In this document: positions 157-14,837 of the stretch, one piece after another
Numbering within the stretch: the stretch's first letter is position 1
Layout of the letters: the number at the start of each line of letters is the position of its first letter
NCBI GenBank assembly: GCA_002369195.1
Contig: DFEW01000009.1
Location: forward strand, 6,854 to 22,564
Direction of reading: 5' to 3'
DNA length: 15,711 nt
Source: Christensenella sp. UBA3792
GTDB taxonomy: Bacteria; Bacillota; Clostridia; Christensenellales; CAG-138
Made by a program: the position numbers and the translations under genes
The notes under the pieces: generated by a model
Databases searched by the model: none
What the model was told of the DNA's origin: nothing
What the model saw: only the letters and a program-made list of their open reading frames with translations

Positions 157-1035
157 TCAGCGTTCCTCGTTCTGGAACTCGTAGAGCAGCGCGTCGCGGA
201 ACAGCTCGATCGCGGCGGTCTGTGCGCCTTTGCGCCACGCAAGCGACACGGGCATCGTCTCCTCGATCGCCATTTGCAGGAACATCGGATCGTGCAGCAC
301 GCGGCACCACTCGTCGAGCAGCGCGACGCCGCGGCCGTTCTCGACATACGAGTGGACGGTCTCCTGATTGGGCAGGGCGCAGAAGCGCGGGACGAAGTGG
401 AACGCGCGGAAGATGCTTTCGCTCTCCTGCACGAGCTCACGAATCAGCGGGTCGTCGGCGATCAGAAAGTCGTAGGAATAGAAGTCCGAGGGATTCTTGA
501 TGCTCTCATACCCCTCAAGGCGGCGCGAATACGCAACCGTGCGCTGCAGCGAGGTGAACCGCTCCGTTTCGAAGTCGGAGAACCGCAGCAGATAGCTTTC
601 GAGCCCGATGACCGCATCGAGCCGCTTTTTGCGCAGGCCCGCGGACAGCCCCTGAAAATCGAGGCATTCATAGACGAGCCGGAATTTGGGGTTTTTCTGC
701 TTGCAGCGTTCGACGACCTTCGGCAGATACCCCGCCGTGCTCCAGCCGATGTTGATGCCGAGGTGCAGCACCTCCGCCGTCTCGTTCATCAGACTCTTGG
801 TGCGGGCGAGCTCCAGCACCGTATGATGGAACAGGTTATAGTATGCCTTCCCCGCGTCCGTTAAGCTGATCTTGCGGTTGCGCTCACGCGTGATCAGGAC
901 CGTACCGAGCTCGTTTTCAAGCGAGGAGATATAGCGGCTGACCGCCGGCTGCGGCAGACGCAGCGTCTCGGCGGCGCGGGTGAAATTCAGCTGGCGTGCG
1001 ACCTCTAAAAAGCAATCGATCTGACGATCGTTCAT
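157..1035 (-). CDS. LysR-family transcriptional regulator
   Basis: The 292-residue product has the length and layout of LysR-type regulators. An N-terminal winged helix-turn-helix occupies about residues 3-60 (FLEVARQLNFTRAAETL, then QPAVSRYISSLENELG). A linker helix follows, then a two-lobed effector-binding domain from about residue 90 to the end. The start at 1035 is chosen because GGAGG lies seven bases before that ATG; an in-frame ATG seven codons upstream lacks such a site. The gene lies 75 bases behind the LVIVD-propeller gene on the same strand, and a strong hairpin sits in the gap. It is probably transcribed from the divergent region at 2491-2736 together with that gene. By the usual habit of the family it would bind there and switch both directions in response to a small molecule, perhaps the substrate of the neighbouring redox genes. 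The ligand cannot be read from the sequence. Confidence 0.93.
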   Translation of the reverse strand: MNDRQIDCFLEVARQLNFTRAAETLRLPQPAVSRYISSLENELGTVLITRERNRKISLTDAGKAYYNLFHHTVLELARTKSLMNETAEVLHLGINIGWSTAGYLPKVVERCKQKNPKFRLVYECLDFQGLSAGLRKKRLDAVIGLESYLLRFSDFETERFTSLQRTVAYSRRLEGYESIKNPSDFYSYDFLIADDPLIRELVQESESIFRAFHFVPRFCALPNQETVHSYVENGRGVALLDEWCRVLHDPMFLQMAIEETMPVSLAWRKGAQTAAIELFRDALLYEFQNEER

Positions 1036-1070
1036 TGTCGTTCCTCCGGATTGCACTGTGCGGGCAGGAC

Positions 1071-1110: not shown

Positions 1111-2490
1111 TTATACGAGACAGCGCAGGATATATACGCCGTCATGCATGGCATTGAGATAGATATAGCCGCGATCGTCCACGATCAGGTCCTCGGCGGT
1201 ACCGAGCGGCTTGTTCGCCATCGGCACGTCGAAGCAGAGCTTTTCGGGATTCGGCGGAATGAAGTACGCGATCTCTTTCGGCACGTACGGATCCGAGAAG
1301 TCGTATACCCGCAGTCCCGCATGGAAATAACAGTCGTAGATGCGATCGGAACGGTCTTCGATCCACGTCTTGTGCGTCATCGGCTCATGCAGGTTGTGCG
1401 GTCCGAACGAGGTCGGGAACGGCTGACCGAGCTGATTGAAGTTCTTGTACGGCCAGTTCTCCGGCACTTCCGGATACGGGAACACGGAGATCAGCACGGG
1501 ATCGGTCGGATCGGAGACGTCGAACGCCTCGATGCCGCAGAACGAATGCACGCCGAAGCGGTTGAACTCGTTCTCCGAATACGTCCACTGGCGCTCGCCT
1601 TCCTGCATGCCGACGGCATACTGCGTGCCGTGTACGGGCATGAAGGTGTGGCACAGCGCGCCGCCGAACTTGGTGGCAAAGGGTGGCGTCATCTTGCACT
1701 CGCCCAGCACCTGCGGCACATGCGGATCAGAGATATCCAGGATCTTGAAGCCGGCGCCTGCGCAGCTGATATAGACGAGGTTCGAATCGGTCTCCGCATA
1801 GGGGAAGTGGACGTAGCCGGGATAGGTGTTGTAGCCCTGCCAGCCGTTCCATTCCTTTTTGCGGGTCTTTTCGGTCTGGTTGCCGATGAACTGACCGGGA
1901 TTCCACCAGCGTCCGACCTCGACCGGATGCTCCGGATCGATGATATCGACGATGCGGTAGATGTAATCCTTGAAGCCGGGCGCGGTCGCCGCCAGATGGA
2001 CGTAGCGTCCGCCGTTGTAGGTGAACCGGTGCACGCCGCTGCCGCGGTTTTCGGGATCGCCGGTCTCCCAGAACGAGAGCTTTTTCGGATGCTCCGGGTC
2101 TTCCTTCAGCGAAAAGATGTGGATGCCGCCGGGCGCGGGCTTGTAATGCTCCGGCGCGGGACCGTGCAGGAACGGAAGGCAGTTGCCGTTCGACACGATC
2201 ATCAGGTCGTCGCAGACCTGAATCTTCGGCGTGGACATGTACGGATACTCCTTCGGATCCATGACGGGCATGTACTGCACGTGACGCGGCTTTTCGGGAT
2301 CGGTCACGTCGAGGATCTCGACGCCGTAGCCGAAAAAGCATCCGCCGTACAGATAGTACTTTCCGTCCGCGGTCTTGTAGAGCTGCGACTGGAACAGATA
2401 GTGGTTGTCGCAGTCGTGGTGGGCCAGGACTTCCATATTTTTAATGTAGCCCTCGTTGCCCGGACTCTTTGCATAAAACTTCGTGCTCAT
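1111..2490 (-). CDS. LVIVD-repeat beta-propeller protein
   Basis: The 459-residue product carries regularly spaced LVIVD-type repeats, each ending in a variant of D-x-S/T-DP-x-x-P. They are at about residues 58-70 (EILDVTDPEKP), 178-190, 248-261 (FKILDISDPHVP), 320-333 and 393-406. A weaker copy (HIFSLKEDPEHP) is near 124-135. Six blades would make a closed propeller. There is no signal peptide or membrane segment, so it should be cytoplasmic. Histidines recur outside the blade motifs (HH near 24-25, H154, H165, H281, H287, HNLH at 366-369, H390). A set of such residues can line a propeller and hold a metal, as in carotenoid oxygenases and SBP56-type methanethiol oxidases; whether it does so here is inference. 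The start at 2490 follows GGGAGG; the ATG nine codons upstream would overlap that site. The gene faces away from the flavoprotein gene and shares its control region. Enzymatic activity is unknown. Confidence 0.85.
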   Translation of the reverse strand: MSTKFYAKSPGNEGYIKNMEVLAHHDCDNHYLFQSQLYKTADGKYYLYGGCFFGYGVEILDVTDPEKPRHVQYMPVMDPKEYPYMSTPKIQVCDDLMIVSNGNCLPFLHGPAPEHYKPAPGGIHIFSLKEDPEHPKKLSFWETGDPENRGSGVHRFTYNGGRYVHLAATAPGFKDYIYRIVDIIDPEHPVEVGRWWNPGQFIGNQTEKTRKKEWNGWQGYNTYPGYVHFPYAETDSNLVYISCAGAGFKILDISDPHVPQVLGECKMTPPFATKFGGALCHTFMPVHGTQYAVGMQEGERQWTYSENEFNRFGVHSFCGIEAFDVSDPTDPVLISVFPYPEVPENWPYKNFNQLGQPFPTSFGPHNLHEPMTHKTWIEDRSDRIYDCYFHAGLRVYDFSDPYVPKEIAYFIPPNPEKLCFDVPMANKPLGTAEDLIVDDRGYIYLNAMHDGVYILRCLV

Positions 2491-2559
2491 TGGTTCCTCC
2501 CTTTGATCGATTTTCACGGTTTTTGGGGTGCATGTTTATGCTTTTGTGATTTCGATTTT

Positions 2560-2588
2560 ATTATACGATTCCCATTTTCAGAATGCAA
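2560..2588 (-). promoter_or_regulatory. Promoter of the LVIVD-lysR transcript
   Basis: Read on the minus strand, TTGCAT (2583-2588) and TATAAT (2560-2565) are separated by exactly 17 bases. The -10 box is a perfect match and the -35 box matches four of six positions of the housekeeping consensus. Transcription would start near 2553, leaving a leader of about 60 bases before the ATG at 2490. The -35 box overlaps the left arm of a 9-base inverted repeat (2587-2595), so a protein bound there would touch the polymerase site. Confidence 0.65.
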
Positions 2589-2650
2589 ATGCCAATTACA
2601 ACGAATTGTTATAACAATATTGCTATTAAAAATTGTCACATTTGGCATTT
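2587..2650. promoter_or_regulatory. Spaced 9-base inverted repeat in divergent region
   Basis: AAATGCCAA (2587-2595) and TTGGCATTT (2642-2650) are exact inverted copies whose outer ends are 64 bases apart. The left arm overlaps the -35 box of the minus promoter and the right arm touches the proposed -35 box of the plus promoter. LysR-type tetramers commonly cover 50-60 bases with outer sites next to the promoter, so this pair is a plausible regulator footprint for both directions. Confidence 0.5.
2605..2618. promoter_or_regulatory. 14-base perfect palindrome, likely operator
   Basis: ATTGTTATAACAAT is identical to its reverse complement. Its centre lies about 58 bases upstream of the proposed minus-strand transcription start (near 2553) and about 72 bases upstream of the plus-strand one (near 2684). 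That is the zone where LysR-type regulators place their primary recognition site. The dyad has T-N10-A rather than the classical T-N11-A spacing, so assigning it to the neighbouring LysR gene rests on position and symmetry only. Confidence 0.5.
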
Positions 2651-2677
2651 TTCATATGAACGCCGTAGTTTTATAAT
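2649..2677 (+). promoter_or_regulatory. Possible promoter of the flavoprotein operon
   Basis: TATAAT (2672-2677) is a perfect -10 box. The hexamer 17 bases before it, TTTTCA (2649-2654), matches the -35 consensus at only four positions, as is common for promoters that need an activator. A second possible pair is TTGTCA (2633-2638) with TATGAA (2655-2660), 16 bases apart. With the first choice, transcription would begin near 2684, exactly at the edge of the 16-base palindrome downstream. Confidence 0.5.
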
Positions 2678-2683
2678 AAAAAC

Positions 2684-2699
2684 AGGCATAATTATGCCT
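2684..2699. promoter_or_regulatory. 16-base perfect palindrome at the start of the plus transcript
   Basis: AGGCATAATTATGCCT equals its own reverse complement. It begins about seven bases after the -10 box, so a protein bound here would block initiation or early elongation. Its half-site GGCAT/ATGCC is the same five bases found in the spaced repeat at 2587-2595 and 2642-2650, giving four copies in about 110 bases. Four related half-sites suggest one regulator binding at several places. Confidence 0.55.
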
Positions 2700-2736
2700 A
2701 TACATCATTTTCTTATTATATTGAGGAGGTAACTAC

Positions 2737-3729
2737 ATGAAAATCCTGGGACTTTCCTGCGGCACCAGAAACGGCAACAACGACACCATGTGCCGTGTCG
2801 CGCTCGAGGCCGCGCGCAACGCGGGGGCGGAAATCGAGTTCATCCACGTATTCGATTGGGACATCAAGTACTGCACGGGCTGCGTCGCATGCTCCAAGGG
2901 ACTCGTCATGGGAAAGGGCATGATCTGCACGCAGAGAGACGACTATGCGGCGCTCTATCAGAAGATGGTGGAAGCGGACGGCATTCTGGTCGTCGACCCG
3001 ATCTACGAATCCGGCGGCTCCGGTCTGTTCCATGTGCTGACCGACCGTATGGGACCCGGTCACGACACCGGCATGCTCCTGATGCTCGACGGCAAGCTGA
3101 AGGAACAGGGCAAGGAAGGTCTGAATCCCCGGATTTTCCAGCAGAAGGCAATCTCCTTTGTCGGCATCGGCGGTTCCGACTGGGCGGTGCGCGTCGAGAC
3201 CGATCACGCGATGCTCGCCATGTCGCCGGGCTGGAAGGTCGTTGACAACGATTTCTTCTCCTGGTCGAAGGACGTCATCATGCAGGACGACAAGATCGCG
3301 AGAATGCAGGAGATCGGCAAGAACCTCGTCGAGGCGGCGCAGTACATCATCGACAACCACGTCATGATCCCCGGCTCCGAAGAAGTCGACCTTTGGAAGG
3401 GCAAGCAGGGCGGCTGCCCGCATTGCCACGGCAACGCGTTCTATATCTTCCCCGGCACAAACCACGCGGTCTGCGAGCTGTGCGGTCTTGAGGGTCACCT
3501 CGAACTGCAGGACGGCGCAATGCGTTTGGTTGCGGATCCGGAGCTCGGCGAGAACGGCCAGATCTGGCACTGCCACGACCTGATTTCCGGCAAAGCCGCG
3601 CACGGCAAGGACATCTTTGAGAACGAAAGCCGTCTCATGAACCTCTTCAAGGACGAGGAGTTCAAGCGCCGCAAGAAGTATTATACCGACGTCGTCGCGC
3701 CGACCCCCGCTCCCTCCAAGGAAAAGTAA
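2737..3729 (+). CDS. Iron-sulfur-flavoprotein-like NAD(P)H-dependent FMN reductase with zinc-ribbon tail
   Basis: The 330-residue product begins as a flavodoxin-like FMN reductase. The strand MKILGLSCGT leads into a phosphate-binding loop with R11-N12-G13-N14-N15, and DGILVVDPIY (81-90) follows. Four cysteines at C46, C49, C52 and C64 match the CxxCxxC...C layout of archaeal and clostridial iron-sulfur flavoproteins (Isf), with a longer last gap (11 residues), so a 4Fe-4S cluster beside the flavin is likely. After about residue 220 there is an addition not found in plain FMN reductases: C227, C230, C246 and C249 form a CxxC-x15-CxxC zinc-ribbon pattern, then a charged tail. GAGGAGG seven bases before the ATG sets the start. 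The gene heads a plus-strand operon. It probably passes electrons to a substrate or a partner protein; the substrate is unknown. Confidence 0.85.
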   Translation: MKILGLSCGTRNGNNDTMCRVALEAARNAGAEIEFIHVFDWDIKYCTGCVACSKGLVMGKGMICTQRDDYAALYQKMVEADGILVVDPIYESGGSGLFHVLTDRMGPGHDTGMLLMLDGKLKEQGKEGLNPRIFQQKAISFVGIGGSDWAVRVETDHAMLAMSPGWKVVDNDFFSWSKDVIMQDDKIARMQEIGKNLVEAAQYIIDNHVMIPGSEEVDLWKGKQGGCPHCHGNAFYIFPGTNHAVCELCGLEGHLELQDGAMRLVADPELGENGQIWHCHDLISGKAAHGKDIFENESRLMNLFKDEEFKRRKKYYTDVVAPTPAPSKEK

Positions 3730-3756
3730 TCCGGTCCGAACGAAAGGAGACCGACT

Positions 3757-4608
3757 ATGGCATTTGAATTCAATCTGATGCGCAGTCTGATCTACGTCGG
3801 ACTTGCCAAGGAGGAATACCGCCCGAAGCTGGAGGAGTGGCTCTATAAATACCATGTGCCCGAATCCATTTCGAAGTTCACACCGTACTGCATCAAGTAC
3901 GCCTTCTATCAGGCGTATCCGACCCCGCCCGAGGGCGAACGGTTCGGCGCAAGAAAGATGCAGCTCACGGAGCACTACTGGCTCGTGGACGAGCATCTGC
4001 CCGAGATGGCGAACAACATCTACAACGAGTACATGCCGATGGACGTCCTGCGCTGGCAGGGCTGCATCCCCGATGTGAACACCTCCGCCCTGCACCAGAA
4101 CGCCGAAACCGGCGACGCAGGCCGTGCGGTGGGCGGCGGCGACTTCCCGCCGTTCATCTTCGCGTTCGTGCCGATCAACTGGGAAGAGGACTTCAAGGGC
4201 GCGGGCCGCACCCCCGAGGACGGACCGAACTACCGCTGGCAGTTCCTCATTCAGTATCCCGAAGGCGTTGCCAAGGAAGACGGCGAAAAGTGGTTCTACG
4301 ACCAGGTCGTTCCGTACTTTACCAAGAGCGTGTTCGTCAACCGCTTCGTCTCCAGCAAGGTCAAGATCAACTACGGCGCGCCGAGCGCGAAGTTCGACCG
4401 TCTGTGCGAGATCTGGTTCGAAGGTCCGGAAGAATGGCACGAGGCGGCAGTCGTCCTCGCTGACCGGATGATCGAAAAGCCCGAATGGGCGCAGCAGGAG
4501 CAGTTCCCGTATCTGAAACCGCAGCACAACATCGCCTCGATGTTCCTCGGCGACCGCGCGACGAGCGACAACCTCGCTCAGTACCGCGGATTCATCACCA
4601 TGCGATAA
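3757..4608 (+). CDS. Tandem dimeric alpha/beta-barrel (EthD-like) protein
   Basis: I cannot assign this 283-residue protein to a characterised family. Its N-terminal part (about 6-80) runs MRSLIYVGL...EEWLYKYHVPESISKF, with the strand, helix and K-Y-H-x-P pattern of EthD-like ferredoxin-fold domains (H33 and P35). A second half (about 160-245) starts again with WQFLIQYPEGVAKEDGEKWFYDQVVPYF, which looks like the same fold repeated, so one chain could form the barrel that usually needs a dimer. The middle stretch (about 85-155) is rich in N, D, G and P and may be an inserted loop. There is no signal peptide or membrane segment. AAAGGAGA precedes the ATG, and the gene follows the flavoprotein by 27 bases, so the two are surely co-transcribed. 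Proteins of this fold include monooxygenases, isomerases, cyclases and heme-binding proteins; which applies here is open. Confidence 0.6.
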   Translation: MAFEFNLMRSLIYVGLAKEEYRPKLEEWLYKYHVPESISKFTPYCIKYAFYQAYPTPPEGERFGARKMQLTEHYWLVDEHLPEMANNIYNEYMPMDVLRWQGCIPDVNTSALHQNAETGDAGRAVGGGDFPPFIFAFVPINWEEDFKGAGRTPEDGPNYRWQFLIQYPEGVAKEDGEKWFYDQVVPYFTKSVFVNRFVSSKVKINYGAPSAKFDRLCEIWFEGPEEWHEAAVVLADRMIEKPEWAQQEQFPYLKPQHNIASMFLGDRATSDNLAQYRGFITMR

Positions 4609-4639: not shown

Positions 4640-5128
4640 ATGAAACCGACAAAGAAAATGATCCTCACGCAGAACCTGGTGTTCAACGCGCCGTTCGCGC
4701 TCATCATGGTTCTCGTCTCCACCTACCTCATGCAGGGCTGGGCGGGCTTCAACTTCACGATGATCCCGATGTTCTTCATCGCACTCGTACTCATCGAGAT
4801 CTTCGGATTCATCATTCCCGTTCAGAAGATCGCGGGCTTCTTCGGCGAGAAGGTCTTTAAGGGCAAGAACCCGATGGCGTTTCCGCAGTTCCTGCTCGTC
4901 GCGGCGGTTCTGACCGTCATCTTCACCGTTCTTATGACCCTCTCCATGACGCTGATCGGCATGCTGATCGGCGGCGCGCCGCTGTCCCTGTACTGGGCGT
5001 CCTGCCTGAAGGTCTTCCCGTGGCTGTGCCTGACCGCATACTGCTGCGTGCTCATCTTCCTGCCGCTCTCCATGAAGGTCTCCGGCATGGATAAGGTTGC
5101 GGCCGGTCCGCGTCCCGAAGGAAAATAA
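4640..5128 (+). CDS. Four-helix membrane protein, DUF2798-like in tandem
   Basis: The 162-residue product has four hydrophobic segments, at about 12-32, 38-60, 82-108 and 117-143. The second half (TVLMTLSMTLIGMLIGG, then a W-x-x-x-x-K-x-FPW helix and IFLPL) resembles DUF2798 membrane proteins, which normally have two helices. The first half (FNAPFALIMVLVSTYLMQG ... FIIPVQKIAGFFG) looks like a diverged copy, so this is probably an internal duplication. AGAAAGGA lies 11 bases before the ATG. It is the last gene before a terminator hairpin and belongs with the flavoprotein and barrel genes, so a role in moving or tolerating their substrate is possible. No function is known for this family. Confidence 0.6.
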   Translation: MKPTKKMILTQNLVFNAPFALIMVLVSTYLMQGWAGFNFTMIPMFFIALVLIEIFGFIIPVQKIAGFFGEKVFKGKNPMAFPQFLLVAAVLTVIFTVLMTLSMTLIGMLIGGAPLSLYWASCLKVFPWLCLTAYCCVLIFLPLSMKVSGMDKVAAGPRPEGK

Positions 5129-5195: not shown

Positions 5196-5732
5196 ATGAA
5201 AAAGCTCAACCGTGAAGCGTGTACCCTCGCCCTGTGCATCGCCCTGTTTCCGCCGATCTGGGCGGTTCTCGCGCCGTATATCGGCGTGCAGACCGGCGCC
5301 GTCGCTCTGATCTGCGCCGGCATCTATGTCGCTGCCGGAAATGAAAAGAAGCGCGCCCTTCCCATGTCGCTCGGCTTTCTTGCCGGCGATGCGTGGGCGG
5401 TGTTGGCACTGTGGATCATGGAGCTGCTGCCGTGGAACGCGAACGTCGAGCTTTTTTCGACCCTGTTCGTGCTCGGCGGCGCCGCGGTGCTGATCGCATC
5501 CGTGCTGCCGCGCGTCTTTTACCTTCCCGCATGGCTGTCCGGATGGGCGATCGGTCTGACAATCCTGGCGCCCGCGGGGTGGGCGAACCTCGGCACCGTG
5601 CCGATCCAGATCGGCGTCGCGATGCTGGTGGGCGTCTGGTACGTGGGCGTCGGCGTGGACGCGGTCCATCGACTGATCCGCAAAGGACGCGACAAACATG
5701 CAACTACTGCTGACGAGGAGAATCACCGATGA
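5196..5732 (+). CDS. Small multi-pass membrane protein, DUF1097-like
   Basis: The 178-residue product has about five to six hydrophobic segments between residues 9 and 160, short loops, and a charged tail (HRLIRKGRDKHATTADEENHR). The spacing of W, P and G residues (PPIWAVLAP, LGFLAGDAWAV, WANLGTVPIQIG) resembles DUF1097 inner-membrane proteins such as E. coli YcdZ, but the match is judged by eye. The start at 5196 is preferred because an upstream in-frame ATG (5097) would lie inside the preceding gene and run through the terminator. Its ribosome binding site is poor (GAAGA). Its stop overlaps the start of the next gene in ATGA, so the two are translated in a coupled way and the protein may assist the carrier. 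Confidence 0.6.
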   Translation: MKKLNREACTLALCIALFPPIWAVLAPYIGVQTGAVALICAGIYVAAGNEKKRALPMSLGFLAGDAWAVLALWIMELLPWNANVELFSTLFVLGGAAVLIASVLPRVFYLPAWLSGWAIGLTILAPAGWANLGTVPIQIGVAMLVGVWYVGVGVDAVHRLIRKGRDKHATTADEENHR

Positions 5733-6940
5733 AGCAACGATCCGTTTCCGTTCGATGGGCATACCTCATTCTGGGCGTCGTCGCCCTGCTGTTTGCGGGC
5801 GTCATCTACGCCTGGTCCATTTTAAAGGCGCCGCTCGCGGATGCGTTCGGCTGGACGAACTCGCAGCTCGCGCTGAACTTCACGCTGACGATGTGCTTCT
5901 TCTGCCTCGGCGGCTTCGTAGGCGGACTGCTCTCCAAGCGTCTCGGCAGCACCGCGAGCTTGATCGTCGCCGCCGTGCTTTCCGGTCTCGGCTTCGTTCT
6001 CGCTTCGCGGATCAACGGCTCCGTCGCGCTGCTGTACGTGTTTTACGGCGTGCTCGCAGGACTCGGCATCGGCATCGCGTACAACGTGATCATTTCGACC
6101 GTCAGCGCCTGGTTCCCCGATAAGAAGGGCCTTTGCTCCGGCGCGCTGATGATGGGCTTCGGCGCTTCCGCGCTGGTCGTCGGCAAGCTCGCCTCCGCCC
6201 TGATGGACGGTCCCGGCTGGCGAACCGCGTACCTTGCGGTCGGCATCGCGCTTGCGGCCGTTCTGCTGGTCACGGCGCTCGTCCTGCGGCGTCCGCCGGT
6301 CGATCTCGCGCTTCCGCAGCCGCAAAAGAAGGCGGCGGGCGCGGACGAATCCTTCGAACAAACCGACTGGCCGACCGTCAAAATGGTGCGCCGGCTGTCG
6401 TTCTGGCTCGCGTTCCTGTGCATCGTGTGCCTGTCCGCCGTCGGCAATACGGTGATCTCCTTTGCGAAGGACCTCGCCCTGTCGGTCGGCGCGAAGGCGG
6501 CGCTTGCGACGACGCTCGTCGGCGTGCTGTCGGTGTGCAACGGACTCGGCCGCATCGTGATCGGCGCGCTGTTCGACGCGCTCGGACGCAAAAAGACGAT
6601 GCTGCTTGCGAACATTCTTACGATCCTTGCCGCATGCATTACGCTCGCTGCGGTGCTGTCAAAGTCCCTGCCCCTTTGCATCGCGGGGCTGTGCCTGACG
6701 GGCTTCTCCTACGGCGCGGGTCCGACCATCTCCTCGGCGTTCATCTCCGCGTTCTACGGAACGAAATACTTCCCGCTGAACTTCTCGGTCATGAACTTCA
6801 ACCTGATGGGCGCGTCCTTTGCGGCGACGGCGGCAAGCGGGCTTTTGGAGTCCACCGGCGGCTATGTTGCGCCGTTCATCCTGCTGCTCGCGCTGGCGGC
6901 GGCGTCGCTGGGGCTGAACCTGTGCATCAAAAAACCGTAA
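5729..6940 (+). CDS. MFS transporter, oxalate/formate antiporter (OFA) family
   Basis: The 403-residue product has the twelve-helix MFS layout with a charged central loop at about residues 188-222. OFA-family hallmarks are visible: YAWSILKAPLADAFGW in helix 1 and the loop after it (27-42), and WFPDKKGLCSGALMMGFGA (128-146), the diagnostic WFP-D-[KR]-[KR]-G stretch. The cargo is likely a small carboxylate, taken up or exchanged. GAGGAG lies before the ATG, and the ATG overlaps the stop of the preceding membrane-protein gene. The next gene follows after 27 bases with no terminator. The carrier could therefore bring in the substrate of the redox genes upstream or move acids for the oxoacid pathway downstream. 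The sequence does not decide between these. Confidence 0.87.
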   Translation: MKQRSVSVRWAYLILGVVALLFAGVIYAWSILKAPLADAFGWTNSQLALNFTLTMCFFCLGGFVGGLLSKRLGSTASLIVAAVLSGLGFVLASRINGSVALLYVFYGVLAGLGIGIAYNVIISTVSAWFPDKKGLCSGALMMGFGASALVVGKLASALMDGPGWRTAYLAVGIALAAVLLVTALVLRRPPVDLALPQPQKKAAGADESFEQTDWPTVKMVRRLSFWLAFLCIVCLSAVGNTVISFAKDLALSVGAKAALATTLVGVLSVCNGLGRIVIGALFDALGRKKTMLLANILTILAACITLAAVLSKSLPLCIAGLCLTGFSYGAGPTISSAFISAFYGTKYFPLNFSVMNFNLMGASFAATAASGLLESTGGYVAPFILLLALAAASLGLNLCIKKP

Positions 6941-6967: not shown

Positions 6968-7669
6968 ATGCAATCCGAACAAACCCGTCTGTTTTTACGG
7001 GACGGGATTCACAATTTTGTCTTTTTGGGCGAGGCGGGCTGCGGCAAAAGCGAGGTTGCCGTGAATCTGGCGCTCGCGCTTGCCGAAACGGCGCAAAAGG
7101 ACGTCCACTTTTTCGACCTGGACATGACAAAGCCGCTGTTCCGCTCCCGCGATCAGGCGGGCATGCTCGAAAGCCGGAACGTGAAGGTGCATTTCGAGGA
7201 GCAGTTCTACGATGCGCCGACCGCGTCCGGCGGCGTGAGCCGGCTGCTGCGGGATGAAACGTGCTATGCGGTGCTCGACGTGGGCGGCGACTACATCGGC
7301 GCACGCTCGGTCGGCGGGTACGCCCCGCTGCTGAACGCACCCGGCACGGCTGTGTTTTACATCATCAATCCATATCGGCCCTGGTCCATGGACATCGACC
7401 ACATCGACCGGGTGCTCGGCGAAACGCTCGGCGTTTCCCACGTGCGGCTCGACCGGCTGCGCCTGCTCGGAAACCCGAACCTCGGTCCGCATACGACCGT
7501 CGAAGAAGTGATCGACGGCGCGCGAAAGCTGATCGAAACGGTCGAACCCTACAAGCCCGTCGAGGGTTGGACGGTCCTCCGTCCCCTTGCGGCGCAGGCG
7601 GAAGCAGCGCTGAACCGGCGCGTTTTCGCGATCGACCTGTATCTCACCTACGAGTGGGAGCAGGGTTAG
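6968..7669 (+). CDS. MinD/CobQ-like P-loop NTPase linked to the oxoacid oxidoreductase genes
   Basis: The 233-residue product has a Walker A loop at residues 21-28 (GEAGCGKS) after a hydrophobic strand (HNFVFL). A DLDMTKP segment follows near 45-52, the position where SIMI-class (MinD, ParA, CobQ) proteins have a conserved acidic strand. YAVLDVGGDYIGA (about 98-110) is a likely Walker B/switch region. The signature lysine early in the Walker A of ParA/MinD deviant loops is absent. AAGGAGG precedes the ATG. The gene stands directly before the four oxidoreductase subunit genes. SIMI NTPases often insert metal or help assemble complexes, so a maturation or regulatory role for the iron-sulfur enzyme is a reasonable guess, but no closer family could be recognised. 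Confidence 0.7.
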   Translation: MQSEQTRLFLRDGIHNFVFLGEAGCGKSEVAVNLALALAETAQKDVHFFDLDMTKPLFRSRDQAGMLESRNVKVHFEEQFYDAPTASGGVSRLLRDETCYAVLDVGGDYIGARSVGGYAPLLNAPGTAVFYIINPYRPWSMDIDHIDRVLGETLGVSHVRLDRLRLLGNPNLGPHTTVEEVIDGARKLIETVEPYKPVEGWTVLRPLAAQAEAALNRRVFAIDLYLTYEWEQG

Positions 7670-7718
7670 CAATCCTTTCAAGATCGACGATACAGAATCC
7701 AAGAAAAGGAGCAAAACA

Positions 7719-7928
7719 ATGGCACAAGGAAAGGTAGAAATCATCAAGGAACGATGCAAAAGCTGCGGCTACTGCATCAAGTTTTGTCCGAAAGGCGTTC
7801 TCGCCGTCGGCAAGGAGGTCAATTCCAAGGGGTATGAGTACGTATATCCGGCGAACCCCGAGGCGTGCATCGGCTGCGCGATCTGCGCAAGGATGTGCCC
7901 CGACGGCGCAATCGACGTATATCGGTAA
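7719..7928 (+). CDS. 2-oxoacid:ferredoxin oxidoreductase, delta subunit (2x 4Fe-4S ferredoxin)
   Basis: The 69-residue product has two classical 4Fe-4S motifs: C13, C16, C19, C23 (with P24) and C50, C53, C56, C60 (with P61). This is the separate ferredoxin-like subunit of four-subunit oxoacid oxidoreductases. It carries electrons from the thiamine centre towards external ferredoxin in the cytoplasm. The residues between the motifs (about 26-45) include the small beta hairpin typical of this subunit. AAAGGAG precedes the ATG. The alpha subunit gene follows 15 bases later. The order delta, alpha, beta, gamma is common for 2-oxoisovalerate and 2-oxoglutarate type enzymes in anaerobes. Confidence 0.92.
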   Translation: MAQGKVEIIKERCKSCGYCIKFCPKGVLAVGKEVNSKGYEYVYPANPEACIGCAICARMCPDGAIDVYR

Positions 7929-7943
7929 GGAGGGAAGGAACAT

Positions 7944-9023
7944 ATGGCACGCATCTTTATGAAAGGCACCGAGGCAGTGGCGGAAGCCGCTGTCCGCGCA
8001 GGATGCCGGTTCTTTGCCGGTTACCCGATCACGCCGCAGAACGAGGTTCCCGAATACCTCGCCCGCCGTCTTCCCGAGGTCGGCGGAGTCTTTGTACAGG
8101 GCGAGAGCGAGGTCGCTTCCGTCAACATGGTGTACGGCGCCGCTTCCGCGGGTACCCGCTCCATGACGTCGTCCTCCTCCCCCGGCATCTCCTTAAAGAG
8201 CGAAGGCATCAGCTACTGCGCTGCCGCCCGCGTTCCGATGGTATACGCAAACTTCGCCCGCGGCGGCCCCGGCGTCGGCTCCATTCAGCCCGCGCAGCAG
8301 GACTATCTGCAGGCAACCAAGGCGTCCGGCAACGGCGGCTTCCGCATGCCGGTGCTCGCGCCTTCTACGGTGCAGGAAGCCGTGGACCTGACCGTTCTCG
8401 CCTTTGACTGGGCGGATCGCGACCGCACGCCCGTGCTTCTGCTTGCGGACGGCGTCATCGGCACCATGATGGAGCCGGTCGAGCTTCCCGTTCCCAAGAC
8501 GGACGAGGAAGTCGCCGCCATCAAGGCGTCCAAGAAATCCTGGGCATGCATCGGTCACGAGCTCGATTACGCGAACCGCGCATGGATCCAGCCCGGCAAC
8601 TGGTCGACCCTCGTGATGCAGAAGTGCAACGAGGACGCGGCTGCCATGTATGAATCCTGGAAGAACGAAGCGATGGTCGAGGAATACCGGACCGAGGACG
8701 CCGAGATCATCCTGACCGCCTACGGCATTTCCGGCCGCATCTGCAAGTCCGCGGTGAATCTGCTGCGCGCGCAGGGCATCAAGGCGGGTCTGATCCGTCC
8801 GATCACCGTTTATCCGTTCCCCGATGCCGCGTACGACCGCATCGACTATTCGAAGGTCAAGGCGATCCTCGACGTGGAGATGTCCATCCCCGCGCTGTTC
8901 GTCGACGACGTGAAGGCGGCGGTGAAGGGCCGCGCCCGCATCGAAACCTGCCTGTGTTCCGGCGGAAACATCATGAGCCGTGAAGCCGTCATCCATGCGG
9001 CGAAGAAAATCGTGGAGGGCTGA
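7944..9023 (+). CDS. 2-oxoacid:ferredoxin oxidoreductase, alpha subunit
   Basis: The 359-residue product matches the pyrimidine-binding subunit of VorB/KorA-type enzymes. It starts with GTEAVAEAAVRAGCRFFAGYPITPQNE, contains the GESE motif with the thiamine-activating glutamate (near 52-55), and has TSSSSPGISLKSEGISY (about 74-90) and ARGGPGVGSIQPAQQDYLQA. The C-terminal part (about 250-330: ILTAYGISGRICKSAV ... IRPITVYPFPD) is the transketolase-C-like domain. Its length fits a stand-alone alpha subunit with no fused gamma domain. AAGGAGG starts translation. With beta it forms the catalytic core that decarboxylates a 2-oxoacid and transfers the acyl group to CoA. The branched-chain (VOR) choice is suggested by the phosphotransbutyrylase and butyrate kinase genes downstream; 2-oxoglutarate is the main alternative. 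Confidence 0.92.
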   Translation: MARIFMKGTEAVAEAAVRAGCRFFAGYPITPQNEVPEYLARRLPEVGGVFVQGESEVASVNMVYGAASAGTRSMTSSSSPGISLKSEGISYCAAARVPMVYANFARGGPGVGSIQPAQQDYLQATKASGNGGFRMPVLAPSTVQEAVDLTVLAFDWADRDRTPVLLLADGVIGTMMEPVELPVPKTDEEVAAIKASKKSWACIGHELDYANRAWIQPGNWSTLVMQKCNEDAAAMYESWKNEAMVEEYRTEDAEIILTAYGISGRICKSAVNLLRAQGIKAGLIRPITVYPFPDAAYDRIDYSKVKAILDVEMSIPALFVDDVKAAVKGRARIETCLCSGGNIMSREAVIHAAKKIVEG

Positions 9024-9026
9024 ACT

Positions 9027-9779
<753 letters not shown>

Positions 9780-9782
9780 TTT

Positions 9783-10331
9783 ATGGAAACCAATCTGTGC
9801 GTCGCCGGTTTCGGCGGTCAGGGCGTCATGTCGCTCGGCAAGTTCCTTGCGGACGCAACCTGCAACTCCACCGACAAGAACGTCACCTTCTTCCCCTCCT
9901 ACGGCGCGGAGCAGCGCGGCGGCACCGCGAACTGCTTTGTGGTCATCTCGGATGACGACATCGGCGCGCCGCTCGGAGACGTCATGGACGACCTCATCGT
10001 CATGAACGGTCCGTCCCTCAACAAGTTCCTGCCCACGCTCAAGAAGGGCGGCAACCTCTTTATCAACAGTTCCATCGTGCCCGATGCGATCGACCGCGAC
10101 GACGTCACGCTCGTCAAGGCGCCCGTCACCGAGCTTGCGCTCGAAATGGGCAACGCAAAGGTGCTGAACGTCATCATGCTCGGCGTTTACGTCGGCTTCA
10201 CGCAGGTCATCGATCCTGCCATCGTGTGGGAAACGATCGAGCACAAGCTCGCATCCAAGCCGAAGCTGCTGCCGCTCAACAAGCTCGCCTTCGACAAGGG
10301 ACTTGAGCTCGGTAAGGCGCAGCGCGCGTAA
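9783..10331 (+). CDS. 2-oxoacid:ferredoxin oxidoreductase, gamma subunit
   Basis: The 182-residue product has the hallmarks of the CoA-interacting gamma subunit: the glycine-rich start VAGFGGQGVMSLGKFLA (7-23) and PSYGAEQRGGTANC (about 38-51). IVMNGPSLNKFLP and GNAKVLNVIMLGVYVG complete the typical fold. Its length is normal for a free gamma subunit. GAGGAGG lies inside the last codons of beta. With delta, alpha and beta it completes the set needed for an active oxoacid:ferredoxin oxidoreductase. Phosphate butyryltransferase follows after 18 bases on what looks like the same message. Confidence 0.92.
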   Translation: METNLCVAGFGGQGVMSLGKFLADATCNSTDKNVTFFPSYGAEQRGGTANCFVVISDDDIGAPLGDVMDDLIVMNGPSLNKFLPTLKKGGNLFINSSIVPDAIDRDDVTLVKAPVTELALEMGNAKVLNVIMLGVYVGFTQVIDPAIVWETIEHKLASKPKLLPLNKLAFDKGLELGKAQRA

Positions 10332-10349
10332 GGCAGAGGGGAGCGTCCT

Positions 10350-11255
10350 ATGGTTTACAGAACCTTTGAAGAGCTGGTTGAAAAGCTGAAGGCATCCGCG
10401 CGCGCGGTGCGCATGGCGGTTGCCGCGGCGGGCGACGAGCATACGATCGAAGCGGTGCTGAACGCCCGCAAAGAAGGCATCGTCTCCCCGATCCTCGTGG
10501 GCGACAAGGCGCTGATCGAAGCGGCGCTCGCAAAATTCGGCGCAACCGTTCCCGCAGAAGACATCTACGACGTGCCGGACATCGCGGAATCGGCGAAGTA
10601 CGCGGTGCAGCTCGTGCGCGAAGGCAAGGCAAACCTGCTGATGAAGGGCAAGCTCGACACGAGCGTCATGCTCCGTCCGGTCGTCAACAAGGAAACCGGC
10701 ATCGGCAAGGGCGGCGTGATGAGCCATTTCACCGCGTTCGAGGTGCCGAGCTACCACAAGCTGCTCGTTCCCGTGGACGGCGGCATGGTCACCTATCCGA
10801 CGCTCGAGCAGAAAAAGGCGATCATCGAAAACACCGTCGGCGCGCTGCGCGCGATGGGCTATGACGAGGTCAAGGTCGGCGTGCTCGCGTGCGTCGAGAA
10901 GCTGAACCCGAAGATGCCCGAAACCGTGGACGCCGATGCGCTCAAGCAGATGAACCTGCGCGGCGAGATCACCGGCTGCATCGTCGAGGGCCCGATCTCC
11001 TACGACTGCGCCGTCAGCAAGGAAATCGCCGATTTCAAGGGCTTTAGTAGCCCCGTCGCCGGCGACGTCGACGTGCTGATCGCGCCGAACATCCACGCCG
11101 GCAACATCATGGGCAAGATGCTCGCATGCACCGCAGGCGCAAAGATGGCGGGCTTCATCGTAGGCGCGCAGGTGCCGATCGTGCTGACGAGCCGCGGTTC
11201 CACGCCGCTGGAAAAGTACAACTCCATCGCGATCGCCGCGGCTGCGGCAGAGTGA
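10350..11255 (+). CDS. ptb: Phosphate butyryltransferase
   Basis: The 301-residue product matches phosphotransbutyrylase in length and motifs. The N-terminal part has VRMAVAAAGDEHTIEAVLNARKEG (about 20-43). LLMKGKLDTSVMLRPVV (about 97-113), then the T-G-I-G-x-G-G-V-M-SH segment, follow. Near the C-terminus are DVLIAPNIHAGNIMGK and LTSRGSTPLEKYNSIA, both typical of the phosphate acyltransferase fold. It swaps CoA for phosphate on butyryl-CoA or a branched acyl-CoA (isobutyryl, isovaleryl). Placed between the oxidoreductase and butyrate kinase, it would take the enzyme's acyl-CoA product. GAGGGGAG precedes the ATG. The kinase gene begins 10 bases after its stop. Confidence 0.92.
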   Translation: MVYRTFEELVEKLKASARAVRMAVAAAGDEHTIEAVLNARKEGIVSPILVGDKALIEAALAKFGATVPAEDIYDVPDIAESAKYAVQLVREGKANLLMKGKLDTSVMLRPVVNKETGIGKGGVMSHFTAFEVPSYHKLLVPVDGGMVTYPTLEQKKAIIENTVGALRAMGYDEVKVGVLACVEKLNPKMPETVDADALKQMNLRGEITGCIVEGPISYDCAVSKEIADFKGFSSPVAGDVDVLIAPNIHAGNIMGKMLACTAGAKMAGFIVGAQVPIVLTSRGSTPLEKYNSIAIAAAAAE

Positions 11256-11265
11256 GGAGGCGACG

Positions 11266-12348
11266 ATGGAAAAACTGCTGATCATCAATCCCGGTTCCAC
11301 GTCGACCAAGATCGCGGTGTTCGAGGACGAAACGCCGCTGTTCACCGAATCCATCGTCCACACGCCCGAGCAGCTCGCGCCGTTTGAGCATGTGGCGGAT
11401 CAGTACGAGTTCCGCAAGGAACTGATCGTCAAGACGCTCGAAGCGCACGGCGTCGGTCTCGACACGCTGACCGGCATCGTCTCGCGCGGCGGTCTTCTGA
11501 CCCCGATCCGCGCGGGCGCATACGAGGTCAACGACGACATGGTCTGGCAGCTGAAGAACCGTCCGCAGAACGAGCATGCGTCCAACGTCGGCGCAATGAT
11601 CGCGCGCGCACTCAGCGTCGAATACGGCATCCCCGCGTTCATCTATGACGGCATCACCGTCGACGAGCTCGACCCGATCAACAAGATCACGGGACTGCCC
11701 GTGTTCCGCAGAAAGGGCATGGGACACAACCTCAACACCCGCGCGGCGGCGATGCGCTACGCGCGCGAATCCGGCAAGGCGTATGCGGACATCACGGTCA
11801 TCGTCGCGCATCTGGGCGGCGGCATTTCCGTCAACCTGCATCACGGCGGACGGATCGTGGACTTCATTTCGGACGAAGAAGGTCCGTTCTCGCCGGAGCG
11901 CTCCGGCGGGCTGCCGATGTTCGACGTCATCAAGATGTGCTACGACGGCGAACATACCTATCATTCGATGATGAAGATGGTCAAGCGCCAGGGCGGTCTG
12001 ATGGCGCATCTCGGCACGACAGACAGCCGCGAGGTGCAGAAGATGGTCGACGCGGGCGACGCGCATGCGAAGCTGATCTACGACGCCATGGCGCTCAACA
12101 TTGCGAAAAACATCGCAAAGTGCGCGCCGTATGTGAAGGGCAAGGTCGATGCGATCCTGCTGACCGGCGGCATCGCGTACTCGGAATACATCACCTCCTA
12201 CATCCGCGAACACGTCGAATTCATCGCGCCGGTCGTCGTCTACCCCGGCGAGGATGAAATGCTCTCGCTTGCGCTCGGCGGACTGCGCGTTCTGCGCGGC
12301 GAAGAGCAGGCGAACGTCTTTGTCAAAAACGAGAACCCCGGTTATTGA
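11266..12348 (+). CDS. buk: Butyrate kinase (possibly branched-chain fatty acid kinase)
   Basis: The 360-residue product is a member of the acetate and butyrate kinase family. LIINPGSTSTKIAVFEDE (4-21) is the phosphate-binding N-terminus, HLGGGISVNLHHGGRIVD (about 184-201) the second phosphate motif, and SPERSGGLP and LTGGIAYSEYI (about 300-310) are also conserved. It makes ATP from acyl phosphate, releasing butyrate or a branched acid. A strong GAGGAGG overlaps the ptb stop codon. The order oxidoreductase-ptb-buk suggests that the acid is formed from a 2-oxoacid, not from crotonyl-CoA, because no butyryl-CoA dehydrogenase or crotonase gene is in the window. Two terminators follow within 100 bases. 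Confidence 0.93.
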   Translation: MEKLLIINPGSTSTKIAVFEDETPLFTESIVHTPEQLAPFEHVADQYEFRKELIVKTLEAHGVGLDTLTGIVSRGGLLTPIRAGAYEVNDDMVWQLKNRPQNEHASNVGAMIARALSVEYGIPAFIYDGITVDELDPINKITGLPVFRRKGMGHNLNTRAAAMRYARESGKAYADITVIVAHLGGGISVNLHHGGRIVDFISDEEGPFSPERSGGLPMFDVIKMCYDGEHTYHSMMKMVKRQGGLMAHLGTTDSREVQKMVDAGDAHAKLIYDAMALNIAKNIAKCAPYVKGKVDAILLTGGIAYSEYITSYIREHVEFIAPVVVYPGEDEMLSLALGGLRVLRGEEQANVFVKNENPGY

Positions 12349-14623: not shown

Positions 14624-14640
14624 GCTGTTTTCCTCCGTTT

Positions 14641-14659
14641 GCGAGCGTCTCCCGCTCGC
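14641..14659 (-). promoter_or_regulatory. Leader hairpin before the receptor gene
   Basis: GCGAGCG (14641-14647) pairs with CGCTCGC (14653-14659). On the transcript the five-base loop reads GGAGA and the hairpin ends a few bases before the real ribosome binding site (GGAGG, near 14631-14635). It may stabilise the 5' end or tune translation of the GTG start. No known riboswitch is evident. Confidence 0.45.
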
Positions 14660-14669
14660 ATAATAGAAT

Positions 14670-14698
14670 ATTATAACATATCGTTGCAGAACGCTCAA
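14670..14698 (-). promoter_or_regulatory. Promoter of the receptor gene
   Basis: On the minus strand TTGAGC (14693-14698) and TATAAT (14670-14675) are exactly 17 bases apart, and TG stands one base before the -10 box (extended -10). The -10 box is a perfect match. Transcription would start near 14663, giving a leader of about 40 bases. This looks like a constitutive housekeeping-sigma promoter. Confidence 0.75.
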
Positions 14699-14837
14699 GT
14701 CATGATTTGAAAGAATCCTGCGCGGTCGGCTGCGGCGCTTGCAAACCGCGGCGCGCGATGATAGGAATGGATGCAATCTGACCGCCGCCTTGCGCGGCCG
14801 GAAACGTGTCACCGCCGCAGAATCAAGGAGAGAAATC
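14699..14837. other. Non-coding stretch without recognisable features
   Basis: Between the receptor promoter and the gene remnant I see no protein-like reading frame, tRNA or clear plus-strand promoter. AAGGAGA (near 14825-14831) at its end is the ribosome binding site of the remnant that follows. The stretch may contain flanks left by the deletion that broke that gene. Confidence 0.5.

What the first reader, a model, noticed from the sequence alone, without database searches (positions are those of the whole stretch)
1111..4608. Uncharacterised redox set: LVIVD propeller, iron-sulfur flavoprotein, double-barrel protein and LysR
Three cytoplasmic proteins of unknown job (a propeller with recurring histidines, an Isf-like flavin/Fe-S protein, and a tandem EthD-like barrel) share one divergent control region with a LysR regulator. 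LysR-type genes beside oxidoreductases commonly report substrate-inducible pathways. The set has a reductase, a possible metal enzyme and a possible ligand-handling barrel, with membrane proteins and a carrier nearby. I infer one pathway that modifies a small organic compound. No described system with this composition comes to mind.
Basis: partly seen in the sequence, partly recalled or inferred. Interest (0 to 1): 0.8.

Follow-up and report, generated by a model that had tools for sequence, protein, structure and literature searches.

The report
Gut flavonol-degradation operon with propeller enzyme
These genes look like a gut/rumen bacterium's kit for breaking down plant flavonols such as quercetin, and the unknown propeller protein is a strong candidate for the missing enzyme that splits the molecule so the cell can harvest energy from it.

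Summary
Two of its three 'unknown' proteins have known families. The 'Isf-like flavoprotein' (2737-3729) is a flavone-reductase (FLR) homologue. The 'tandem EthD-like barrel' (3757-4608) is a bacterial chalcone isomerase (CHI), the family that turns flavanonols into auronols such as alphitonin. The set is a flavonoid/flavonol catabolic operon.

The LVIVD propeller has no known function. It tracks CHI: found in 59 of 62 CHI-positive Clostridia genomes and 0 of 424 CHI-negative handles tested. Two of the three exceptions carry a DAPG/phloretin-hydrolase-like protein near CHI; the third is 67% complete. In five lineages a 2-oxoacid:ferredoxin oxidoreductase lies within 10 kb, in four of them with Ptb and/or Buk; here all three follow (6968-12348). 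In two propeller-less clusters that enzyme is the indolepyruvate (IOR) type.

Best reading: flavonol -> flavanonol (FLR) -> auronol (CHI) -> phloroglucinol + arylpyruvate (propeller, inferred) -> arylacetyl-CoA -> arylacetate + ATP. A 2025 paper calls the alphitonin-cleaving enzyme unknown. The catalytic role is untested; the pathway assignment is strong.

The parts
157..1056 (-). LysR-type regulator, probably of the divergent operon
   Evidence: PF00126 and PF03466 over cut-off; a LysR lies within 10 kb of CHI or LVIVD in 34 of 46 genomes or contigs compared
1111..2490 (-). LVIVD propeller; proposed auronol (acyl-phloroglucinol type) C-C hydrolase
   Evidence: PF08309; 4 invariant His (154, 228, 281, 365) in 105 sequences; AF2 pLDDT 93.8; best PDB match is the propeller hydrolase 5hrm; tracks CHI. 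Function inferred.
2611..2626 (.). imperfect palindrome ATAACAATATTGCTAT, candidate LysR box between the two promoters
   Evidence: variants in 6 of 6 intergenic regions compared, window included; perfect palindrome in L003
2560..2565 (-). candidate -10 box (TATAAT) towards the propeller gene
   Evidence: scan; found in 6 of 6 regions compared
2672..2677 (+). candidate -10 box (TATAAT) towards the FLR gene
   Evidence: scan; found in 6 of 6 regions compared
2737..3729 (+). flavone reductase (FLR) homologue: flavone/flavonol -> flavanone/flavanonol
   Evidence: phmmer to 7d38 E 3.7e-78 over residues 1-323; FMN_red
3757..4608 (+). bacterial chalcone isomerase (CHI), E. ramulus type: flavanonol -> auronol ring contraction
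   Evidence: PF18232 E 1.9e-53; 4d06 E 1.2e-87 over residues 3-283
4640..5128 (+). small protein with membrane-type sequence, no family; candidate uptake component
   Evidence: no Pfam match; relatives next to CHI in L002, L003, L014, L017
5196..5732 (+). DUF1097 protein; candidate uptake component
   Evidence: PF06496 E 9.7e-19 (scanned from the longer ORF at 5097); within 10 kb of CHI or LVIVD in 12 of 46
5729..6940 (+). OFA/monocarboxylate-type MFS carrier
   Evidence: MFS_1; closest NCBIfam models NF049980 and TIGR00890, both below cut-off; in 13 of 46
6968..7669 (+). P-loop NTPase of the oxidoreductase cluster, role unknown
   Evidence: CbiA/ParA-like, just below cut-off; a relative is on 17 of the 18 compared stretches that hold a VorB gene, L150 being the exception
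7719..7928 (+). two-cluster ferredoxin (delta) subunit
   Evidence: two CxxCxxC motifs; OorD/PorD-like, below cut-offs (scanned from 7740)
7944..9023 (+). 2-oxoacid:ferredoxin oxidoreductase alpha (VorB type); proposed arylpyruvate oxidation
   Evidence: NF005507 429.8 vs 399 bits
9027..9779 (+). 2-oxoacid:ferredoxin oxidoreductase beta (VorA)
   Evidence: PorB/KorB-like, below model cut-offs
9783..10331 (+). 2-oxoacid:ferredoxin oxidoreductase gamma (VorC)
   Evidence: PF01558 E 2.2e-33
10350..11255 (+). phosphate butyryltransferase (Ptb) homologue; proposed arylacetyl-CoA -> arylacetyl-phosphate
   Evidence: best models NF004472 and TIGR02706, both below cut-off; just over the cut-off of the bifunctional model NF006045, 282.8 vs 282
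11266..12348 (+). butyrate kinase (Buk) homologue; proposed arylacetyl-phosphate + ADP -> arylacetate + ATP
   Evidence: TIGR02707 464 vs 289 bits

Best explanation
The locus is an anaerobic flavonol-catabolism operon under a LysR regulator. Assigned by homology: FLR reduces the C2=C3 bond of flavones/flavonols, and CHI ring-contracts flavanonols to auronols (alphitonin from quercetin via taxifolin). Inferred: the LVIVD propeller, related to a metal-dependent propeller hydrolase, cleaves the bond between the A-ring and the former C4 of the auronol (the hemiketal of an aryl 1,2-dione). This releases phloroglucinol and an arylpyruvate. Inferred from gene context: the adjacent VorBAC oxidises the arylpyruvate to arylacetyl-CoA + CO2 + reduced ferredoxin, and Ptb/Buk convert this to arylacetate (3,4-dihydroxyphenylacetate from quercetin) + ATP. 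The membrane proteins and the OFA carrier import the flavonoid or export the acid.
For: (1) CHI and FLR identity. (2) The propeller tracks CHI. Class sample: propeller in 4 of 391, all four among the 6 CHI genomes (chance 1.6e-8, or 1.0e-6 without the window's own genome, kinship ignored). Family f8: 46 of 47 CHI+ vs 0 of 20 CHI- tested out of 302. Lachnospiraceae: 10 of 10 CHI+ vs 0 of 20 CHI- tested out of 319. The two f8 genomes with two propellers (G396, G411) also have two full CHI genes. (3) It tracks CHI rather than FLR: 3 FLR-positive, CHI-negative genomes lack it, though two of these FLR matches are only 34-35% identical. (4) The CHI genomes without propeller, G163 and G226, and Acetoanaerobium noterae L020, carry a 206-225 aa DAPG/phloretin-hydrolase-like protein within 3 kb of CHI. 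(5) Oxidoreductase, Ptb and Buk lie within 10 kb of CHI or LVIVD in 19, 16 and 15 of 46 genomes or contigs, in different gene orders; L144 has them in one run: VorB-A-C-Ptb-Buk-LVIVD-FLR-DUF1097-CHI-OFA. In L020 and L033 the oxidoreductase is IOR (TIGR03336, 694.7 and 705.9 vs cut-off 650.9). (6) Precedent: two gut 'VOR-like by sequence' enzymes that preferred aromatic 2-oxoacids (PMC13290082 passages), and Ptb/Buk homologues in an arylpyruvate-oxidation cluster, hypothesised to make ATP (PMC13285125 passages). (7) Catenibacillus decagia turns alphitonin into 3,4-dihydroxyphenylacetate, and the authors propose a dihydroxyphenylpyruvate intermediate (PMC11170127 passages). (8) A genome identified as E. 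ramulus (CHI 98.6% identical to the PDB chain), named in that paper for this route, has two propellers.
Against: No activity data for the propeller. In E. ramulus and eight other LVIVD+CHI genomes the two genes were not found together on the stretches fetched, and 27 of 46 have no oxidoreductase within 10 kb. E. ramulus also has a divergent DAPG-hydrolase-family protein (L235), 4 of 12 LVIVD genomes have distant relatives of the Phy-like protein, and 4 of 17 have a PF18089 protein; these could do the cleavage instead. Metal ligands of 5hrm were not mapped; the alignment to it is partial. The IOR clusters are the ones without the propeller; propeller clusters carry VOR-type enzymes, whose model is named for a branched-chain 2-oxoacid. 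VorB relatives of 77-80% identity also lie away from CHI in three Lachnospiraceae genomes. The window's Ptb is below the phosphate-butyryltransferase cut-offs. Propeller relatives at 25-34% identity in Proteobacteria sit in other catabolic loci without CHI or FLR (12 regions).
Confidence: 0.6

Rival explanations
1. Same flavonoid pathway, but the propeller does another step on the CHI branch, for example opening or isomerising the auronol hemiketal, or making the flavanonol stereoisomer CHI accepts; the C-C cleavage is done by a DAPG/Phy-family hydrolase encoded elsewhere.
For: E. ramulus and some other LVIVD genomes have Phy-family proteins elsewhere; CHI without propeller exists where a Phy-like protein is present. 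One distant propeller lies beside an AI-2 kinase gene.
Against: 13 of 17 LVIVD genomes tested have no PF18089 match at E 0.01, and 8 of 12 no match to the Phy-like protein, so these would lack a cleavage enzyme (some genomes are incomplete). The Phy-like protein stands near CHI in 3 of 46, none of which has LVIVD.
Confidence: 0.22
2. FLR/CHI homologues here act on a different plant aromatic (flavanone, isoflavone or another polyphenol), and the VorBAC-Ptb-Buk set is ordinary branched-chain amino-acid fermentation that merely sits nearby.
For: VorB matches the 3-methyl-2-oxobutanoate model; G000 shows a single VorB-type gene at E 1e-30, so it may serve general metabolism; 27 of 46 loci lack an oxidoreductase nearby.
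Against: Interleaved order in Pseudobutyrivibrio, Butyrivibrio and Oribacterium (CHI-Ploop-Fd-VorBAC-Ptb-Buk-OFA-FLR), one run in L144, and separate IOR+Ptb+Buk clusters beside CHI/FLR.
Confidence: 0.13
3. The propeller is a non-catalytic flavonoid-binding or scaffold protein.
For: Most listed PDB matches are WD40-type interaction propellers.
Against: Invariant His, Glu, Asp and Arg set in 105 sequences; best fold match is a hydrolase, E 1.6e-16 against 1.5e-9 for the next entry.
Confidence: 0.05

Closest known systems
Eubacterium ramulus / Flavonifractor plautii flavonoid pathway (FLR, CHI, Fcr, Phy)
   Same: FLR and CHI homologues; the genome identified as E. ramulus carries the propeller
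   Different: No PF18089 (Phy) protein found in the window's genome (73.6% complete); a propeller and an oxidoreductase-Ptb-Buk module are added; the propeller is not mentioned in the papers whose text I searched for it (PMC7862272, PMC8398226, PMC11170127)
Clostridium butyricum flr-fcr-phy operon (PMC11868195)
   Same: FLR start, anaerobic flavonoid degradation
   Different: No CHI found there; reductive C-ring cleavage via a potential Fcr and Phy (passages); here the CHI/auronol branch
Sb-PTE, haloalkylphosphorus hydrolase of Sphingobium TCM1 (PDB 5hrm/5ioj)
   Same: Best Foldseek and sequence-profile match to the propeller; a cited title calls it a binuclear metal centre in a seven-bladed propeller (reference list)
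   Different: About 16% identity; phosphotriester substrate; metal ligands not shown to be shared
Oxidative aromatic amino-acid fermentation (IOR/VOR-like + Ptb/Buk homologues; HpdJ/HpdK)
   Same: Arylpyruvate -> arylacetyl-CoA -> arylacetate + ATP logic (PMC13285125, PMC13290082, passages)
   Different: Here fed by a flavonol, not an amino acid; the cluster contains FLR and CHI

Membership tests
Flavone reductase FLR | Full-length homology to the solved FLR (7D38-7D3B) | tested here: met
   phmmer E 3.7e-78, query 1-323
Flavone reductase FLR | Reduces flavones/flavonols | not testable with these tools
   needs an enzyme assay
Bacterial chalcone isomerase (E. ramulus type) | Chalcone_N domain and full-length match to 4D06/3ZPH | tested here: met
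   179.5 vs 25 bits; E 1.2e-87 over 3-283; the His of 'kyHvpesis' aligns with the His of 'KVHIPDSIS' (that this His is catalytic is recalled)
Bacterial chalcone isomerase (E. ramulus type) | Flavanonol ring contraction | not testable with these tools
   needs an assay; family activity stated in PMC8398226 (passage)
LVIVD repeat propellers (PF08309) | Pfam model over gathering score | tested here: met
   27.5 vs 20.2 bits for the whole protein, no single stretch significant alone
Sb-PTE phosphotriesterase | Same metal-ligand set | tested here: inconclusive
   only parts align; H228 aligns with a His of 5hrm in the single-sequence alignment; ligands of 5hrm not seen in any call
DAPG/phloretin hydrolase (PF18089) | PF18089 domain in the propeller | tested here: not met
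   only PF08309 found in the propeller
Fcr-Phy reductive flavonoid route | Phy in the genome | tested here: not met
   no PF18089 in G000, but the genome is 73.6% complete; Fcr not searched
2-oxoacid:ferredoxin oxidoreductase, VOR type | VorB model over cut-off with beta, gamma and ferredoxin subunits | tested here: met
   alpha 429.8 vs 399 bits; beta and delta by similarity below model cut-offs; gamma
Arylpyruvate-specific oxidoreductase | Activity on aromatic 2-oxoacids | not testable with these tools
   in print, sequence alone mispredicted this for two VOR-like enzymes
LysR-type regulator with divergent target | HTH_1 + LysR_substrate and a conserved palindrome in the divergent promoter | tested here: met
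   binding not tested

The most novel reading that the evidence does not exclude
The LVIVD propeller founds a new class of metal-dependent C-C hydrolases that split auronols (alphitonin type) into phloroglucinol and an arylpyruvate. It would be the missing enzyme of anaerobic flavonol breakdown, and it lets gut and rumen bacteria make ATP from the flavonol side chain by arylpyruvate oxidation. In some lineages a DAPG-hydrolase-like protein does the same job (non-orthologous replacement).
Probability: 0.5. Interest if true: 0.85.

Novelty: new variant of a known kind. Interest (0 to 1): 0.75.

Why it matters
[quoted passage not shown] A 2025 paper states that alphitonin is expected to be cleaved by 'an unknown enzyme' (PMC12203004 passage). 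This work names a single testable candidate, present in named rumen strains such as Pseudobutyrivibrio ruminis DSM 9787. It also suggests why cells would degrade flavonols at all: a predicted ATP and reduced ferredoxin per molecule. If right, the propeller gene together with CHI becomes a marker for flavonol-to-arylacetate capacity in microbiomes.

Tried and rejected
'EthD-like ligand barrel': rejected in favour of CHI; NCBIfam TIGR02118 EthD scores only E 0.016, below its cut-off.

Phy-like assignment of the 206-225 aa proteins: a first profile comparison gave nothing (several ORFs in the Phy set had been picked wrongly). With corrected ORFs hhalign gave P 3.6e-6 for that one comparison. A protein of the E. 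ramulus genome bridges the two: it passes PF18089 (27.7 vs 22.7 bits) and matches the query at E 1.9e-13. PDB searches with these proteins found nothing useful.

A dedicated 'flavonoid' VOR clade was considered. VorB relatives of 77-80% identity also lie away from CHI and LVIVD in G906 (E. ramulus), G797 and G1056, so no clade claim is made.

Literature: LVIVD + flavonoid gave one unrelated paper. 'LVIVD' and 'propeller' do not occur in the main texts of PMC8398226 and PMC11170127, nor 'propeller' in PMC7862272. One listed paper holds 'beta-propeller' and 'flavonol' (PMC13426309, aryl sulfotransferases) and was not opened. This speaks for this open-licence library only. The CHI ring-contraction paper PMC5055601 is not held.

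Limits of the counts: the 46 genomes or contigs are the window, the 17 loci fetched with the propeller (biased to close relatives), two plasmid records, 5 class-sample genomes, 10 of 10 CHI-positive Lachnospiraceae (one of them among the 17) and 15 of 47 CHI-positive f8 genomes picked across genera (three of them already counted in those groups). One genome can bear two handles (L002 lies in G747 and its contig also appears as G658:C16), so up to 20 of the 424 CHI-negative handles may be counted twice. CHI-negative f8 and Lachnospiraceae genomes were tested only in part (20 of 302 and 20 of 319). The f8 search used the L035 propeller as query, the others the window's.

Not done: no F. plautii genome was recognised in the samples; Fcr was not searched.

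Full report
WHAT IS THERE. The four genes described are present at the stated coordinates and lie around one divergent control region. Pfam, NCBIfam and PDB searches identify the tandem barrel at 3757-4608 as a bacterial chalcone isomerase (PF18232 1.9e-53; PDB 4d06 1.2e-87). The flavoprotein at 2737-3729 is a homologue of the flavone reductase FLR (PDB 7d38 3.7e-78; entry assigned to FLR in PMC7862272, passage seen). Both enzymes belong to anaerobic flavonoid breakdown, so the set is not uncharacterised as a whole. The propeller at 1111-2490 has no assigned function.

THE OPERON IS LONGER THAN THE FINDING. Downstream on the same strand come two small membrane-type proteins, an OFA-type carrier, a P-loop protein, a ferredoxin, the three subunits of a VOR-type 2-oxoacid:ferredoxin oxidoreductase, a Ptb homologue and a butyrate-kinase homologue (to 12348). 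In Pseudobutyrivibrio, Butyrivibrio and Oribacterium these genes are interleaved with CHI and FLR: CHI-Ploop-ferredoxin-VorBAC-Ptb-Buk-OFA-FLR, next to a divergent LVIVD and a LysR. The 17 loci were fetched with the propeller, so they are biased to close relatives; CHI is visible in 15 of 17, the other two being contigs of about 4 kb. In G1018 all lie in one run: Ploop-VorB-VorA-VorC-Ptb-Buk-LVIVD-FLR-DUF1097-CHI-OFA (L144).

THE PROPELLER TRACKS CHI. In 391 Clostridia genomes drawn evenly from the class, CHI occurs in 6 and the propeller in 4, all four among the six (chance 1.6e-8, or 1.0e-6 without the window's own genome, ignoring kinship). In family f8, CHI occurs in 47 of 349; the propeller in 46 of those 47 and in 0 of the 20 CHI-negative genomes tested. 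The one miss (G466) is 67% complete with an incomplete CHI match. In Lachnospiraceae, CHI occurs in 10 of 329; the propeller in 10 of 10 and in 0 of the 20 CHI-negative genomes tested. Pooled, with one CHI-positive and one CHI-negative f8 genome that were also in the class sample counted once: 59 of 62 CHI-positive and 0 of 424 CHI-negative handles; up to 20 of the latter may be double counts. FLR occurs in 9 of the 391, including all six CHI genomes; the three FLR-positive, CHI-negative ones (two at only 34-35% identity) lack the propeller. So it follows CHI, whose family makes the auronol.

NEIGHBOURHOODS. In 46 genomes or contigs compared (selection told under Tried and rejected), LVIVD lies within 10 kb of CHI in 31 of the 43 that have it. 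Within 10 kb of CHI or LVIVD there is a LysR in 34 of 46, an oxidoreductase in 19, Ptb in 16, Buk in 15, DUF1097 in 12 and OFA in 13. The oxidoreductase cases fall in five lineages: the window's family f1, Lachnospiraceae, f46 (G121), f8 (G411, oxidoreductase only) and f51 (G163).

THE EXCEPTIONS ARE INFORMATIVE. CHI loci without propeller in G163 and G226, and in Acetoanaerobium noterae (L020, found by CHI search of plasmid records), carry a 206-225 aa protein of the DAPG/phloretin-hydrolase type 6-2,894 bp from CHI. Its direct Pfam score is below cut-off (E 0.0015 and 0.00026), so the assignment rests on a profile comparison and on an intermediate sequence. That superfamily hydrolyses the bond between an acyl group and the phloroglucinol ring (recalled for PhlG and Phy), the reaction the propeller would have to do. 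Two of these three clusters (L020, L033) also hold Ptb, Buk and IOR (TIGR03336 over cut-off), an oxidoreductase named for an arylpyruvate. Different enzymes for the same two steps, beside the same CHI/FLR pair, point to an arylpyruvate intermediate.

CHEMISTRY. Alphitonin is the cyclic hemiketal of an aryl 1,2-dione (recalled). Hydrolysis between the A-ring and the old C4 gives phloroglucinol + 3-(3,4-dihydroxyphenyl)pyruvate. Oxidative decarboxylation and thioester-to-ATP conversion give 3,4-dihydroxyphenylacetate. This fits known products. Catenibacillus decagia turns quercetin, taxifolin and alphitonin into 3,4-dihydroxyphenylacetate; C. scindens makes the lactate; the authors suggest dihydroxyphenylpyruvate as a hypothetical intermediate (PMC11170127 passages). 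Butyrivibrio is cited for quercetin -> phloroglucinol + 3,4-dihydroxyphenylacetate (PMC8780962 passage). The cleaving enzyme is called unknown (PMC12203004 passage). Two VOR-like enzymes with aromatic preference, and Ptb/Buk homologues beside such oxidoreductases, are in print (PMC13290082 and PMC13285125 passages).

THE PROPELLER ITSELF. In 105 aligned homologues four His (154, 228, 281, 365), Glu 297, 406 and 433, and Arg 155, 300, 394 and 440 are invariant. AlphaFold2 gives pLDDT 93.8. The best Foldseek match is the Sphingobium phosphotriesterase 5hrm, E 1.6e-16 against 1.5e-9 for the next entry, and a profile search also finds it (2.9e-11). A cited title calls it a binuclear metal centre in a seven-bladed propeller (reference list seen). 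A metal-dependent hydrolase is therefore the natural guess, but metal binding is not shown. In 12 distant relatives (25-34% identity to the G121 copy) from plasmids of Proteobacteria, His 228, 281 and 365 are kept in 12 of 12 and His 154 in 11 of 12, while Lys 89 is replaced (His in 11, Gln in 1). Their regions of 14-15 kb hold no CHI or FLR relative.

CONTROL REGION. The LVIVD/FLR intergenic region holds an imperfect palindrome (2611-2626) and a TATAAT on each side, found in all six such regions compared: the window, L002, L003, L004, L014 and L017. The pattern was written after the alignment was seen, so this is a footprint, not a test.

WEAK POINTS. The propeller's activity is inferred. In nine LVIVD+CHI genomes, E. 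ramulus included, propeller and CHI were not on the same fetched stretch, and 27 of 46 have no oxidoreductase within 10 kb of CHI or LVIVD. E. ramulus has a DAPG-hydrolase-family protein as well, 4 of 12 LVIVD genomes match the Phy-like protein distantly and 4 of 17 have a PF18089 protein. The E. ramulus identification of G906 rests on a CHI 98.6% identical to the PDB chain. The VorB model is named for a branched-chain 2-oxoacid, and the propeller-linked clusters carry VOR, not IOR.

VERDICT. Flavonoid/flavonol catabolic operon: about 0.9. Propeller as the auronol-cleaving hydrolase feeding arylpyruvate oxidation and ATP formation: about 0.5-0.6. The finding turns an open step of gut and rumen flavonol metabolism into a simple enzyme test.

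Noticed in passing
L141:8759-13784 (genome identified as E. ramulus): A second, more divergent propeller sits with an MFS carrier, an SDR, a glyoxalase-family protein and a LysR; a glyoxalase+SDR pair also lies near distant propellers in Leisingera and Alisedimentitalea plasmids (L223, L232).
   Followed up: partly
L226:6995-9840 (Roseicitreum antarcticum plasmid): A distant propeller lies beside an autoinducer-2 kinase gene, with FucU-like and 'antibiotic biosynthesis monooxygenase' genes nearby; AI-2 is also a dione that cyclises (recalled), a possible hint at a shared substrate type.
   Followed up: no
L019:11805-15849 (Clostridioides difficile plasmid) and L032:5028-9110 (G301): Propeller-FLR-DUF1097-CHI module in the same order on a 163-kb plasmid and on the 4.26-Mb contig of G301.
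   Followed up: partly
L119-L123: Very divergent CHI paralogues (about 21-28% identity) in five Lachnospiraceae genomes that also have true CHI.
   Followed up: no
P0129: A propeller labelled Klebsiella oxytoca, 77% identical to the G121 one, starts with what looks like a signal peptide, so some members may be periplasmic.
   Followed up: no
window 12449-14839 (-): SpoIIE-type phosphatase with a dCache sensor domain directly after the operon.
   Followed up: partly
L031:3783-5651 and L033:5825-7678: Sigma-54-dependent regulators with a PrpR_N domain lie in the same cluster as CHI in two families, a possible alternative to LysR control.
   Followed up: partly
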